Assembly (NCBI GenBank): GCA_024180945.1
Contig: JAKSGN010000006.1
Location: 62,001 to 126,000 of the forward strand
Length of the DNA stretch: 64,000 nt
Direction of reading: 5' to 3'
From: Macrophomina tecta
Taxonomy: Eukaryota; Ascomycota; Dothideomycetes; Botryosphaeriales; Botryosphaeriaceae
Shown piece by piece: positions 40,116 to 64,000 of the stretch (position 1 is its first letter; every line of letters starts with the position of its first letter). The position numbers and the translations under genes are program-made. The notes below the pieces were generated by a model. The model had not been told where the DNA came from and made no database searches. It worked only from the letters and a program-made list of their open reading frames with translations.

Positions 40116-43100
40116 CTCCTCACCGAACCCCCGGCGCTACCAGCTTTAGCCGCATCATCATCCTCGCCCGGAGTCGCCGTGATCATAGTGGTAGGAACGT
40201 CAGCGGTGGAGGCCGGAATGGTGGCTCCCGCACGACCAGCACCGCCGGAACTTTGAAAGCGCACCTGGAAGGTGGTACGGCTGCGGCTTCCTTGGTGCGG
40301 AAACGACAGCACAGGGGCAGGTGATTTGTCGGAAGAGGGCACGGTCGCTGGAGATGCATACGCATGGGCAGCTTCGGTGTGGATCTCCGCGGAGCGTGGA
40401 GTAGCTTTGGAACTGATCTGGGCGCGGAGCGGATGGTGGGAGCGGGCCGGCGGCTCAACAAGCGTAGCGGCGTATTGGTGTGGATCACGAAGAGCGCGCA
40501 GGGCTGGCGATGGTTCGCCCGGCAGGCTCGTCTGCTGTGGCCGTCCACTTCCTGGCGCCGCCGTCACGACGGCGTGCGCATTCGTGCCGCCGAACCCGAA
40601 CGCACTGACACCTGCTGCTAGTAGGGGTGCGATAGTCTTGTCATGGAGGGCAGGAGCTAGACGCTGGGCGCGGGTGGGGAGGACAAAGCTGAAGTCATTG
40701 CTATCGACGATCGCCGGGTTGAGGCGGCGGAAGTTGACATTTGGAGGAAGGAGGCCGCCGTGGTTGAGGACAAGAACAGCCTTGATGAAGCTTGCCATGC
40801 CGGCCGCTGCTTCAAGGTGGCCAATCTGTCCCTTTATGGCGCCCAGAGCCAAGGGGTGCTCTCGGTGCTGCTGTGAAAATGGCCCGAAGACGCTCTTGAG
40901 TGCGTTGAATTCGATCGGGTCGCCCAAGCTGGTGCCCGTGCCGTGAGTTTCGACGTAGGCAACATCCCTGGGTTGCAGGGCAGCATCGGCTAACGCTTCG
41001 CGGATGACTTCCACTTGCGAGGGCCCGCTCGGAGCAGTCAGACTGGCTGATCGGCCGTCCTGGTTAATGGCTGCGCCCTTCAGGACCGCCAGGGGTGATG
41101 TGAGCGAATTCCGAGCCTTTGTGAGGACGACGGCGCCGCAGCCTTCACCACGGCCGTAGCCATCTGCGGAGGCATCGAAGGGCTTTGAGCGGTTGTCCGA
41201 CGGCGAGACCATCTTGGAGCGCGATACTTGCTCGAAGGTGGCCGGATGGAGGTGGACCTGAACGCCGCAGACGACGGCTGCCTCGCACTCGCCGTACCTG
41301 ATAGCCTGGCGCGCCAGGTGCAGCGCAACGAGACTGGACGAACAGGCTGTGTCCACGACCATGCTGGGCCCGCGCAGCCCAAAGCAGTACGACACCCGAT
41401 TCGCGAGCAGCGAGGCTGCCGAGCCCGCACCCGTGAGAGCGTTCTTGAAGCCCAGCGCCTTGCTCCACTCACTAGGGCCCGCACCCACAAAGACGCCAAT
41501 GCGCTTTCCATCCAACTCGTCCCGCTCAAAGCCTGCACGGTGGAGTGCTTGCCAGCACGTGCGCAGCACGAGCCGCTGCGCTGGATCCGTGGCTTCACTC
41601 TCGCGCCGCGACATGCCGAAGAAGGCGTGGTCGAAGCTGAAGACTTGGTCGTAAGACAGCATCGCCGCTTCTTTAATTGTCACTGCCGCTTCGCCTTCGG
41701 TGCGAAGCAGCTGTCTGTTGTACTGCTCAATGTCAAGTCGATCCGCGCTGATAGGGCCAACCATGTCCTTGCCGGACACGAGCACGTCCCAGAAGGCTTC
41801 GATGCCGTCAGCTCCTGGGAAGACACAGTCCATGCTAGCGACGACGATATCATCGCCCTGGGTAGCGCTTGCTCCGGGAGCTGCTGTTTCGCTGACTGTT
41901 CTGGACGCTTCTTGCAGAGGGCGAGACACGGCGGCCGTCTTTGTCTGCAAAAAGGCTGCTAGTTTGCTAAGGTTAGGGTAGTCGAAGGCGACTGACGTGG
42001 GTAGAGTGCACCCTAAGCGGTCCTCGAGCACGTGGCGGAAGGAGACAGAAGTAAGTGAGTCCAGGCCAGCATCGAAGAACGGCGTAGAGTCGCTGTCAAG
42101 GCTTCTGCCTGTCACCTCCTCGAATGCGGAGCGAATGATTGCAGGCGCCGGGAAAGCTCCAGTAATTGAGCTTTCGGGTGGTTGAGCACCAGTTATTCCT
42201 TGTCTTTCGGTGTCTGGCAGCACTGTCTCCGATGATGGCGCAACCGGCTTCCTGACACCCTGGCGAGACAGCCATACTGCAGTAAGACGATCGTCTATGA
42301 GGCTTACGACTCCAGACGCACTCTGGGTAGCCTGTATTATGGCGCGCTTAAACGTCTCCAACGGCATCATCCCTTCTTGTTCTGCCCCGCTGGCCGAGGC
42401 CCGAGCAGCGAAGCCGACAGATGCCACCGCGTCGATCTGGAGAGACACATAACGCGTGCATGATTGACGATGGCGGCGTTGCTGCTGCTCTTCTTCCAGT
42501 AGCACGGCATCCATGGCCGCGTTGGCTGCGGCGTACTCAGCTTGATGCCGCAGCCCTAACAGTGCCGACGTTGAGGAGAATCCAATGATGAAACCAGTGT
42601 CCCTGCTGCGAAGTGCTCCCAGTAGTGCCCTCAGGCCATCTACTTTTACACTGCGATGGCGCTCGAAGGAAGCCCTGTTAAATCCTTTGGTCTCTGCACC
42701 CTCGCCACTTGAAAGCTGGCCTGCAGCATGGAAAGCGCCCGCAATGGAGCCCCAGCGTGATTGAAGGCGGCGGACAACATCAGTAACTTGCCCTTGGTCC
42801 GTCACATCTGCCTGGTGAATCGAGACTCTGCCTGGCTCGTCGAGCAGGAGCCTGGAAAGCCGCTCAGTAGAACCCTTCGTAGCTCGTCCCGAGCGGGAAA
42901 GTAGCGCCACGTGCGCTGCGCCTGCCTCGAGAAGCGCTTCAGCGGTGGCGAGACCGAGGCCACCTGTCCCGCCTGTGATGATGAAAGTGTTCTGCATCAA
43001 TGTGGTGGCGTTGACTGCCGGCTGCTGTAAGTTAGATGTTGGAGCGGCGGGGACCAAGCAAGGAAGGCAGAGATGGCCGCTATCCGCGACGTGGACTTCT

Positions 43101-63130: not shown

Positions 63131-64000
63131 CCTTCTCGACGTGCTGCCGTAGAACCGGCTCAGCGCGTGCTGTTGGCCTTTCTCCCATCCCGCCAGTGCT
63201 GCGCCCAAAGAACGCTTGAAACAGTTTGGGCGGTACGTGGTACTTTGCCAACATCTTGGCCCAGTCGATTGGACTCAACGCAACGGTGATTGCATCAGAG
63301 TCAATCAGGGCTTCAATGCCGTTACGAGCGAGGAGCTTTGGAATGGAAAGGTAGCCGATGGTGTGTCGCAGGTCGGCACGACGACGGGCAGCTTCGCCGA
63401 CAGCCGACACGCTGCTGAACTGGATCGACACGGCGGGGAGATGCTGGGCGCGGCGGTGCGCAGCCAGAGCATCCATGAAAGAGTTGCAGGCAGCGTGGTT
63501 AGCCTGCCCAGCGGAGCCGAGCACCGATGCCATGGACGAGAAGAGGGCGAAGAAACGCACGGGATCCTGTTTCGTCGCTTGATGCAAATTCCAGCTTCCC
63601 GCAACCTTGGGGCCCATGAGCGCGCGGAAGCGCTGCATGTCCTGATTAGGGAGCGTTGCGGAATCAAGCACGCCCGCCGCTTGCACTACGCCGACGATGG
63701 GCCCCTGCTGCTGCCTCACCTCAGCAAGAACGCTTTCCACGGCGGAATGGTCAGCCACATCGCAACGATGGATTCGATATTGCGCATTCCCGGCTAGGAA
63801 GCGTCTCCAGTCGTTGCTGGCGTCGGCGGGGACCTTGCCGGAGCGCGAGAGGAAGGCAAAGCGCTTCCAGCCGCGTTCCCGCAGCATGCAGGCCGTCAGC
63901 ACGCCGAGGCCACCCAGGCCACCGGCGAGGACGACAACGCCATTGCGGTCTTCCGAGTTGGCCGTCGAGAGCGGGCGCGGAACGCGCGGCGACGTCGCAG
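63131..64000 (-). CDS. Modular PKS, ketoreductase at the 5' side (partial)
   Basis: The frame is open from the window end. It encodes a ketoreductase with the NADPH loop LAGGLGGLG, SRSGK, FALFSSMASVLG and GQANHAACNSF (His where Tyr is expected, Asn conserved), then a linker ending HVEKA at the hAT-1 junction. The frame continues into copy B and stops at 63063, but without the transposon it runs on into the ACP array at 60239. The KS and other domains of this module, the start codon and the promoter lie beyond 64000. Confidence 0.88.

What the first reader, a model, noticed from the sequence alone, without database searches (positions are those of the whole stretch)
40116..64000. Giant multimodular assembly-line PKS in a fungal genome
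Four KS, four KR, two cMT, one ER, one AT and at least eight ACP domains lie in one reading frame (apart from one insertion and one frameshift), over 7,000 residues and incomplete at both ends. Known fungal type I PKSs are mostly single-module iterative enzymes; multimodular assembly lines are a bacterial (and some protist) architecture. This is the best candidate here for an undescribed system.
Basis: partly seen in the sequence, partly recalled or inferred. Interest (0 to 1): 0.95.

Follow-up and report, generated by a model that had tools for sequence, protein, structure and literature searches.

The report
Modular polyketide assembly line in fungus
This fungus carries two giant neighbouring genes for an eight-module polyketide assembly line, a layout known from bacteria and some protists but not usual in fungi, and relatives in other fungi show that it is a real fungal system and not contamination, although the copy here is interrupted by a jumping gene.

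Summary
In window 40117-64000 lie four KS, four KR, two cMT, one ER, one AT and eight ACP domains, plus two DH, interrupted by one hAT transposon and one frameshift. The window shows part of gene 1. The whole system spans about 54 kb of a 4.63-Mb fungal contig: gene 1 (minus strand, about 10,800 residues, six KS) and a divergent gene 2 (plus strand, about 5,850 residues, two KS, final thioesterase). Together: eight KS with intact Cys-His-His, only three AT, six cMT, thirteen ACP. Gene 1 ends in a bare KS; gene 2 starts with cMT-ACP, so module 6 looks split between the proteins. It is not contamination: the hAT family has at least 40 near-identical copies here, and orthologues occur in Lasiodiplodia theobromae and L. 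hormozganensis (70-80% identity) and in unnamed assemblies (47-53%, one 73%). The KS domains group not with this fungus's own iterative PKSs but with apicomplexan modular enzymes (100/99 support; ER agrees). A tree uniting them with fungal PKSs is worse by 43 log units, yet not formally rejected (AU p 0.10-0.15). Ten literature searches found no description. The product is unknown, and gene 1 is broken in this genome.

The parts
37391..40116 (-). hAT DNA transposon copy at the 3' end of gene 1 (frames 37493-38191 and 38191-39786); no target-site duplication, so probably a recombination junction
   Evidence: PF05699 Dimer_Tnp_hAT in the 232-aa frame; 2726 nt identical to the other copy, inverted; no TSD found
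40117..46717 (-). Gene 1, 3' piece (ORF D): KR4 second part, ACP, module 5, KS6
   Evidence: open frame of 2271 codons, its last part inside the hAT; Pfam; homologous to P0003/P0069/P0070
40658..41884 (-). KS6, last domain of gene 1
   Evidence: PF00109/PF02801; Cys-His-His present; last KS also in P0003, P0069, P0070
41948..42136 (-). ACP of module 5
   Evidence: PF00550, GLDSL
42479..42988 (-). KR5 (Tyr form of the catalytic motif)
   Evidence: PF08659; AEYAAAN
44459..45670 (-). KS5 (no AT follows; about 480 aa of unassigned sequence up to KR5)
   Evidence: PF00109/PF02801; Cys-His-His
45761..45949 (-). ACP of module 4
   Evidence: PF00550, GVDSL
46301..46474 (-). KR4, second part, downstream of the frameshift (frame D)
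   Evidence: PF08659 positions 127-179
46488..46862 (-). KR4, first part (frame C); frameshift between the two parts, orthologue P0003 runs through
   Evidence: PF08659 positions 1-120; C 4640 and D 81 abut P0003 1790 and 1802
46452..60431 (-). Gene 1, middle piece (ORF C): four ACPs, module 3, module 4 up to KR4
   Evidence: open frame of 4660 codons, Pfam
47133..47441 (-). cMT of module 4
   Evidence: PF08242; GAGTGG
48675..49556 (-). DH4
   Evidence: PF21089/PF14765; HxxxG motif
49755..50621 (-). AT4, the only AT inside the window; HAFH motif
   Evidence: PF00698; GHSLG and HAFH
50802..52022 (-). KS4
   Evidence: PF00109/PF02801; Cys-His-His
52221..52760 (-). Two tandem ACPs of module 3 (outer bounds of the first are approximate)
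   Evidence: PF00550, 2 stretches; GLDSL twice
53112..53642 (-). KR3 (His in place of the catalytic Tyr)
   Evidence: PF08659; QANHAAAN
53943..54248 (-). cMT of module 3, placed between ER and KR
   Evidence: PF08242
54777..55646 (-). ER3
   Evidence: PF08240/PF00107/PF13602
56472..57287 (-). DH3, directly after KS3 (no AT between)
   Evidence: PF21089/PF14765
57561..58781 (-). KS3
   Evidence: PF00109/PF02801; Cys-His-His; VGCCSNDW as in the Toxoplasma enzyme P0175
58917..60236 (-). Four tandem ACPs of module 2 (outer bounds approximate)
   Evidence: PF00550, 4 stretches; four GxDSL
60406..63130 (+). hAT transposon interrupting gene 1 between KR2 and the ACPs; 8-bp target-site duplication CCTTCTCG
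   Evidence: at least 40 near-identical copies in the genome
63131..64000 (-). Gene 1, 5' piece, end of ORF B (continues to C6:137263 outside the window): KR2 at 63408-63941
   Evidence: PF08659; the rest of ORF B: ACP-KS1-DH-KR-ACP-KS2-AT-DH-ER-cMT

Best explanation
A genuine nuclear fungal gene cluster that encodes a non-iterative, multimodular type I polyketide synthase of protist-like ancestry, made of two divergently transcribed giant proteins. Inferred mechanism: a starter is loaded in trans on the N-terminal ACP of protein 1; each of eight KS domains extends the chain once with malonyl units. Three modules (2, 4, 7) carry their own AT; the five AT-less modules (1, 3, 5, 6, 8) are fed by those ATs or by a separate one. 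The chain is C-methylated from S-adenosylmethionine in six modules and reduced to different degrees in each. It passes from the terminal KS6 of protein 1 to the cMT-ACP at the start of protein 2 (a split module) and is released by the C-terminal thioesterase as a reduced, methyl-branched acid or lactone. Shown: domain content, order, gene ends, intact KS catalytic residues, conservation in other fungi, KS and ER affinity to apicomplexan enzymes. Inferred: collinearity, substrate, transfer between the two proteins, product. In this genome protein 1 is interrupted by a recent hAT insertion and a frameshift, so this copy probably makes no product.
For: Domains. Extent, both genes. Orthologues: P0002/P0003 (L. 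theobromae; 73-80% over 1,793-3,051 aa with ORFs B and C, 70% over 2,192 aa with ORF D), P0122/P0123/P0124 (72-73% over nearly the whole of gene 2), P0069/P0070 (52-53%), with the same domain order where printed (P0002, P0003, P0069, P0070, P0123) and the same end after KS6. Eukaryotic setting: at least 40 hAT copies on 13 contigs, TSD, fungal neighbours, GC3 0.60-0.69, within the 0.58-0.88 of the longest frames of 14 PKS loci of the same genome. Ancestry: KS clade with apicomplexan enzymes, P0007 and one KS of P0024 (26 of 95 rows, 100/99; with P0077 and all five P0007 KS added, 30 of 90 rows, 100/98); ER clade with apicomplexan, P0007 and P0077 ER (15 rows, 97/90); KS 'DW' residue in 6 of 8 cluster KS, 7 of 16 apicomplexan aligned rows, 6 of 8 P0007/P0077, 2 of 12 own, 9 of 1,506 others. 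Each cluster KS scores better against its best apicomplexan hit (44-51% identity) and its best other hit (42-51%) than against its best own-genome PKS hit (37-42%).
Against: AU tests do not reject one clade of cluster KS plus own iterative PKS KS (p 0.152; p 0.101), though both are 43 log units worse. Cluster KS are not one clade in the best trees (3 and 5 changes), though one clade is acceptable (p 0.474). The cMT, KR and AT trees do not show the apicomplexan link: no apicomplexan cMT was found; in the KR tree the cluster rows stand apart from apicomplexan and bacterial rows alike; AT is weak. One KS of P0024, whose other three KSs fall among bacteria, sits in the clade, so an unsampled bacterial source is open. 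Five of seven KR have His for Tyr, so KR activity in the cMT modules is not certain. No transcript, product or single-use evidence.
Confidence: 0.78

Rival explanations
1. Bacterial or protist contamination, or a chimeric assembly.
For: Open frames of 17.6 kb and, apart from insert and frameshift, over 30 kb without introns and GC 0.53-0.62 against mostly 0.45-0.54 around (4-kb steps) look bacterial.
Against: A hAT of a family with at least 40 near-identical copies on 13 contigs sits inside the gene with a TSD; fungal genes on both sides; the contig is 4.63 Mb; orthologues in other fungal genomes; GC3 is that of other PKS genes here; the unnamed homologue P0070 carries a 45-residue insert that could be a retained intron (by eye; its DNA was not seen).
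Confidence: 0.03
2. Fusion and tandem duplication of the fungus's own highly reducing iterative PKSs.
For: AU tests do not exclude it.
Against: KS and cMT fall in different groups; ER-cMT-KR order in all three ER modules, while fungal iterative enzymes are recalled to have cMT-ER-KR (own ER domains were not recovered); five modules without AT; cluster KSs are only 39-49% alike, so not recent duplicates.
Confidence: 0.1
3. Direct horizontal transfer of a bacterial modular PKS cluster into the Botryosphaeriales.
For: cMT, AT and KR have their best hits in proteins of bacterial or unknown source; the His-for-Tyr KR beside cMT occurs also in other cMT proteins, named bacterial ones among them (9 of 13); mixed AT and AT-less modules occur in a bacterial protein (P0347); the best bacterial KS (53% to KS2) is as near as the best apicomplexan one (51%).
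Against: No bacterial KS above 53% in a capped scan of species genomes (595 stretches, limit reached, 80 kept, identity to KS2 only); KS and ER place the cluster with apicomplexan enzymes and apart from bacterial ones.
Confidence: 0.3
4. Dead relic: the line no longer works in any fungus.
For: Here gene 1 is interrupted by a hAT and a frameshift; P0126 seems to lack the cMT of module 8.
Against: Protein records of full gene 2 length in two Lasiodiplodia species and long gene 1 records in one; 52-53% identical homologues keep the order; all eight KS triads are intact here, so the damage here is recent.
Confidence: 0.1

Closest known systems
Apicomplexan (coccidian) type I modular FAS/PKS (Toxoplasma P0175, Cystoisospora P0125, Neospora P0004, Besnoitia P0343)
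   Same: Multimodular; KS and ER domains form supported clades with the cluster; 'NDW' in many KS; a third KS without a detected AT in P0125.
   Different: No cMT found there; host and module order differ; identity only 44-51% in KS.
Algal noniterative type I PKS (PMC4661987, passages read)
   Same: Multimodular proteins of MDa size with modules lacking AT; protist KS form a clade apart from bacteria.
   Different: Almost all of the algal ones rely on AT in trans; here three of eight modules have an AT; no named algal sequence was in my trees.
Bacterial cis-AT and trans-AT modular PKS
   Same: One KS per module, thioesterase end, split module at a protein border, AT-less modules; His-KR beside cMT occurs there too.
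   Different: KS not in the bacterial groups; order ER-cMT-KR seen in 0 of 347 non-cluster proteins (about 94 cMT matches among them).
Fungal highly reducing iterative PKS
   Same: Same kinds of domains, cMT included; fungal host; P450 and MFS neighbours.
   Different: One module used repeatedly against eight modules; different KS and cMT groups; a 2013 study calls all known fungal PKSs iterative except LovF (PMC3705289, passages).

Membership tests
Modular (assembly-line) type I PKS | Several complete modules, each with its own KS and ACP, in one or few proteins | tested here: met
   8 KS and 13 ACP in two proteins
Modular (assembly-line) type I PKS | KS catalytic Cys-His-His in every module | tested here: met
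   8 of 8
Modular (assembly-line) type I PKS | Each module used once (collinearity) | not testable with these tools
   needs product or in vitro data
Fungal highly reducing iterative PKS | Single module KS-AT-DH-cMT-ER-KR-ACP (order recalled) | tested here: not met
   8 modules; ER-cMT-KR order; 5 modules without AT
Fungal highly reducing iterative PKS | KS groups with fungal iterative PKS KS | tested here: inconclusive
   best trees place it elsewhere (100/99, 100/98), AU p 0.10-0.15
trans-AT PKS | No AT in any module, separate AT in the cluster | tested here: not met
   AT in modules 2, 4, 7; the AT search gives no other match within C6:1-216000
trans-AT PKS | KS in the trans-AT KS clade | tested here: not met
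   10 of the 12 rows labelled trans-AT (proteins listed without PF00698) form their own group (100/100 and 100/99), the other two fall among bacterial rows; AT-less P0007 does lie with the cluster
Protist-type (apicomplexan) modular PKS/FAS | KS in a supported clade with apicomplexan modular enzymes | tested here: met
   26 of 95 rows 100/99; 30 of 90 rows 100/98
Protist-type (apicomplexan) modular PKS/FAS | Other domains agree | tested here: inconclusive
   ER yes (97/90); KR and AT do not; cMT absent there
Protist-type (apicomplexan) modular PKS/FAS | KS place among haptophyte, chlorophyte and dinoflagellate KS | not tested
   no named sequences of these groups were obtained

The most novel reading that the evidence does not exclude
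The first true modular, one-pass polyketide assembly line native to fungi: an eight-module, two-protein, mixed AT/AT-less line of protist ancestry, gained by transfer from a protist (or kept from an early eukaryote) by an ancestor of the Botryosphaeriales, conserved in several lineages, and making an unknown multiply C-methylated reduced polyketide.
Probability: 0.5. Interest if true: 0.92.

Novelty: new variant of a known kind. Interest (0 to 1): 0.83.

Why it matters
Fungal type I PKSs are taught as single-module iterative machines. A conserved eight-module line in a fungal chromosome breaks that rule, offers a collinear and thus predictable fungal polyketide system, and makes the origin of eukaryotic modular PKSs testable: the same KS and ER lineage appears in coccidian parasites and in filamentous ascomycetes. 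Public records already hold long relatives under misleading bacterial names (PpsA, PpsC, PikA1), so it can be followed up at once.

Tried and rejected
(b) Profile comparison of these stretches with DH, KR, cMT and AT profiles: no convincing match for module 5 (best KR E 0.0062, DH E 0.025, probability under 7%), for the gene 2 N-terminus, or for the stretch after cMT6 (best KR, E 0.046); DH1 is a clear DH relative (97% probability). (c) ER, KR or cMT in four small own-genome pieces downstream of other PKS loci: none found, so the ER tree holds no fungal iterative ER, and the cMT-ER-KR order of HR-PKS was not verified here. (d) AT tree: weak. (e) A first IQ-TREE run timed out; FastTree stood in. 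(f) viral contigs: one match only, 40%.

Considered and rejected: IS21-like bacterial insertion (my first guess from the two frames of 531 and 232 aa): Pfam finds the hAT dimerisation region. Separate AT in the cluster: none found. The rows that I named FAB and used as outgroup (L001, L034) are PKS-like frames of this fungus, L034 being KS-AT-DH-KR, not FabF; they serve as an arbitrary root, and the clades quoted are sides of branches. P0077 was counted as bacterial; one search shows it beside P0007, source unknown. For the 90-row tree I dropped two rows (API_P0343.1, U_P0024.3) and ten of 32 bacterial loci of the 95-row tree, and used 32 of the 43 loci in which a KS was found. ranks by summed score over many KS, so it is not a clean list of nearest KS. 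Low min_terms made several paper searches noisy.
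Full report
What was checked. The window is G000:C6:62001-126000 of a 54.1-Mb, 37-contig genome; contig C6 is 4.63 Mb. The insertion is a hAT element (60406-63130, 8-bp TSD); a second copy, identical over 2,726 nt, lies inverted at 37391-40116 and has no TSD. A DNA search lists 40 near-identical copies on 13 contigs (116 candidates, 40 scored), so the family moved recently.

The whole system. Reading on along C6 shows two divergent giant genes with about 1.4 kb between their likely start codons. Gene 1 (minus, C6 about 137200 to 102117): ACP - KS1-DH-KR-ACP - KS2-AT-DH-ER-cMT-KR-[hAT]-ACPx4 - KS3-DH-ER-cMT-KR-ACPx2 - KS4-AT-DH-cMT-KR(frameshift)-ACP - KS5-(unassigned)-KR-ACP - KS6. 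Gene 2 (plus, C6:138629-156181, 5,851 codons): (unassigned)-cMT-(unassigned)-ACP - KS7-AT-DH-cMT-KR-ACP - KS8-DH-ER-cMT-KR-ACP-TE. In all eight KS, three AT, six DH, three ER, six cMT, seven KR, thirteen ACP, one TE. All eight KS keep Cys-His-His. Between KS and DH of the AT-less modules 3 and 8 lie about 92 and 88 residues, and about 66 before the DH1 profile match in module 1, too few for an AT. AT2 and AT4 have HAFH, AT7 RPFH; that HAFH means malonyl is recalled.

Gene ends. P0003 (L. theobromae), P0069 and P0070 (unnamed) stop 176-201 residues after KS6, so gene 1 naturally ends in a bare KS, and module 6 is completed by the cMT-ACP at the start of gene 2 (a split module, inference from position). 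P450 matches in two short frames and one partial MFS transporter frame lie 1.2 and 4.3 kb beyond the TE end of gene 2; short frames are what intron-bearing genes would give.

Fungal, not contamination. (1,178 of 1,346 candidates matched, 120 listed) gives P0002 and P0003 from Lasiodiplodia theobromae (70-80% identity over long stretches); (1,858 of 2,300, 120 listed) gives P0122 from L. hormozganensis and P0123 from L. theobromae, both covering gene 2 nearly end to end at 72%. P0002, P0003 and P0123 are all listed with a longest contig of 371,828 bases, so probably lie on one contig. Lasiodiplodia is in the Botryosphaeriaceae; that the window's fungus is a relative is inferred from these matches only. 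P0069, P0070 and P0126 (unnamed assemblies) are 47-53% identical; P0069 and P0070 keep the order, P0126 seems to lack the cMT of module 8; unnamed P0124 is 73% identical. The public names (PpsA, PpsC, PikA1) look like automatic transfers (inference).

Ancestry. KS trees with a site-heterogeneous model place all eight cluster KS and their fungal orthologues with apicomplexan enzymes (Neospora, Toxoplasma, Cystoisospora, Besnoitia), P0007 and one KS of P0024, 26 of 95 rows, 100/99. With P0077 and all P0007 KS added, two rows dropped and ten bacterial rows thinned out, the group is 30 of 90 rows at 100/98. The fungus's own ten other PKS KS and the ten rows of the main trans-AT group lie outside. 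The bootstraps had not fully settled in either tree. The ER tree agrees (15 rows, 97/90; it holds no fungal iterative ER). Cluster cMT form one side of a branch (SH-aLRT 87) apart from seven own PKS cMT (89) in a quick tree. A KS residue supports it: Trp after the Asp of 'NDW' in 6 of 8 cluster KS, 7 of 16 apicomplexan rows and 6 of 8 of P0007/P0077, but 9 of 1,506 others and 2 of 12 own. Against: AU tests do not reject joining cluster and own PKS KS (p 0.152, 0.101); the cluster KS as one clade is equally acceptable (p 0.474) though not found in the best trees; the KR tree keeps the cluster apart from apicomplexans and bacteria alike; the AT tree is weak; the best bacterial KS (53% to KS2, capped scan) is as near as the best apicomplexan (51%). 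So the iterative-PKS origin is disfavoured, and protist against unsampled bacterial source stays open.

Domain peculiarities. In the three modules with ER and cMT the order is ER-cMT-KR; this order occurs in 0 of 347 other proteins scanned with profiles built from the cluster, with limited sensitivity to distant cMT. KR next to a cMT has His for the catalytic Tyr: 15 of 15 in cluster proteins (this genome and its orthologues), while 7 of 8 cluster KR without a detected cMT have Tyr; elsewhere 9 of 13 KR with a cMT have His, against 1 of 1,064 without; the one own fungal PKS frame with cMT-KR has Tyr. Whether His-KR works is unknown.

Mechanism. Best reading: a starter on the N-terminal ACP, eight malonyl extensions, C-methylation in six modules, variable reduction, TE release. 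Collinearity is inferred. In this genome the product is unlikely: the hAT cuts gene 1 between KR2 and its ACPs, and a frameshift cuts KR4.

Literature. Ten searches found no fungal multimodular PKS of this sort (lists capped). Passages read: PMC4661987 (algae; multimodular, mostly with AT in trans), PMC3705289 (fungal PKS called iterative except LovF), PMC11258130 (bdelloid rotifers). Other papers were seen in search listings only. Subscription journals and bioRxiv were not searched.

Noticed in passing
window 34307-37390: NACHT/NPHP3_N gene followed by ankyrin-like 34-aa repeats (102-nt tandem units, mostly 84-87% alike), most units broken by TGA or TAG: looks like an NLR gene inactivated by C-to-T mutation of repeats (RIP; inference), ending at the hAT edge.
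   Followed up: partly
window 37391-40116: hAT copy without target-site duplication lying between a broken NLR gene and the truncated end of the PKS gene: probably a recombination junction between two hAT copies (inference).
   Followed up: partly
window 53112-53642 and the other KR domains; other proteins such as P0128, P0159, P0231: KR catalytic Tyr replaced by His almost only in modules that carry a cMT, in the fungal cluster (15 of 15) and in other proteins (9 of 13 against 1 of 1,064 without cMT).
   Followed up: partly
P0070: 45-residue insert inside KR4 that could be a retained intron; P0069 and the sequence here are uninterrupted at that place (by eye; DNA of P0070 not seen).
   Followed up: no
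P0007, P0077, P0024 (KS number 4): Unnamed proteins whose KS (and for P0007 and P0077 ER) group with the fungal and apicomplexan ones; possibly algal or other protist modular PKSs (inference).
   Followed up: partly
window 7501-9654, 10231-10947, 27224-27994, 29162-30268: JmjC protein, FTA2-like protein, DXD glycosyltransferase-like protein and a Tc-type transposase frame.
   Followed up: no
L012:1369-2330 and 4470-4901: Cytochrome P450 and MFS transporter frames downstream of the thioesterase end of gene 2, probably tailoring and export genes of the cluster.
   Followed up: partly
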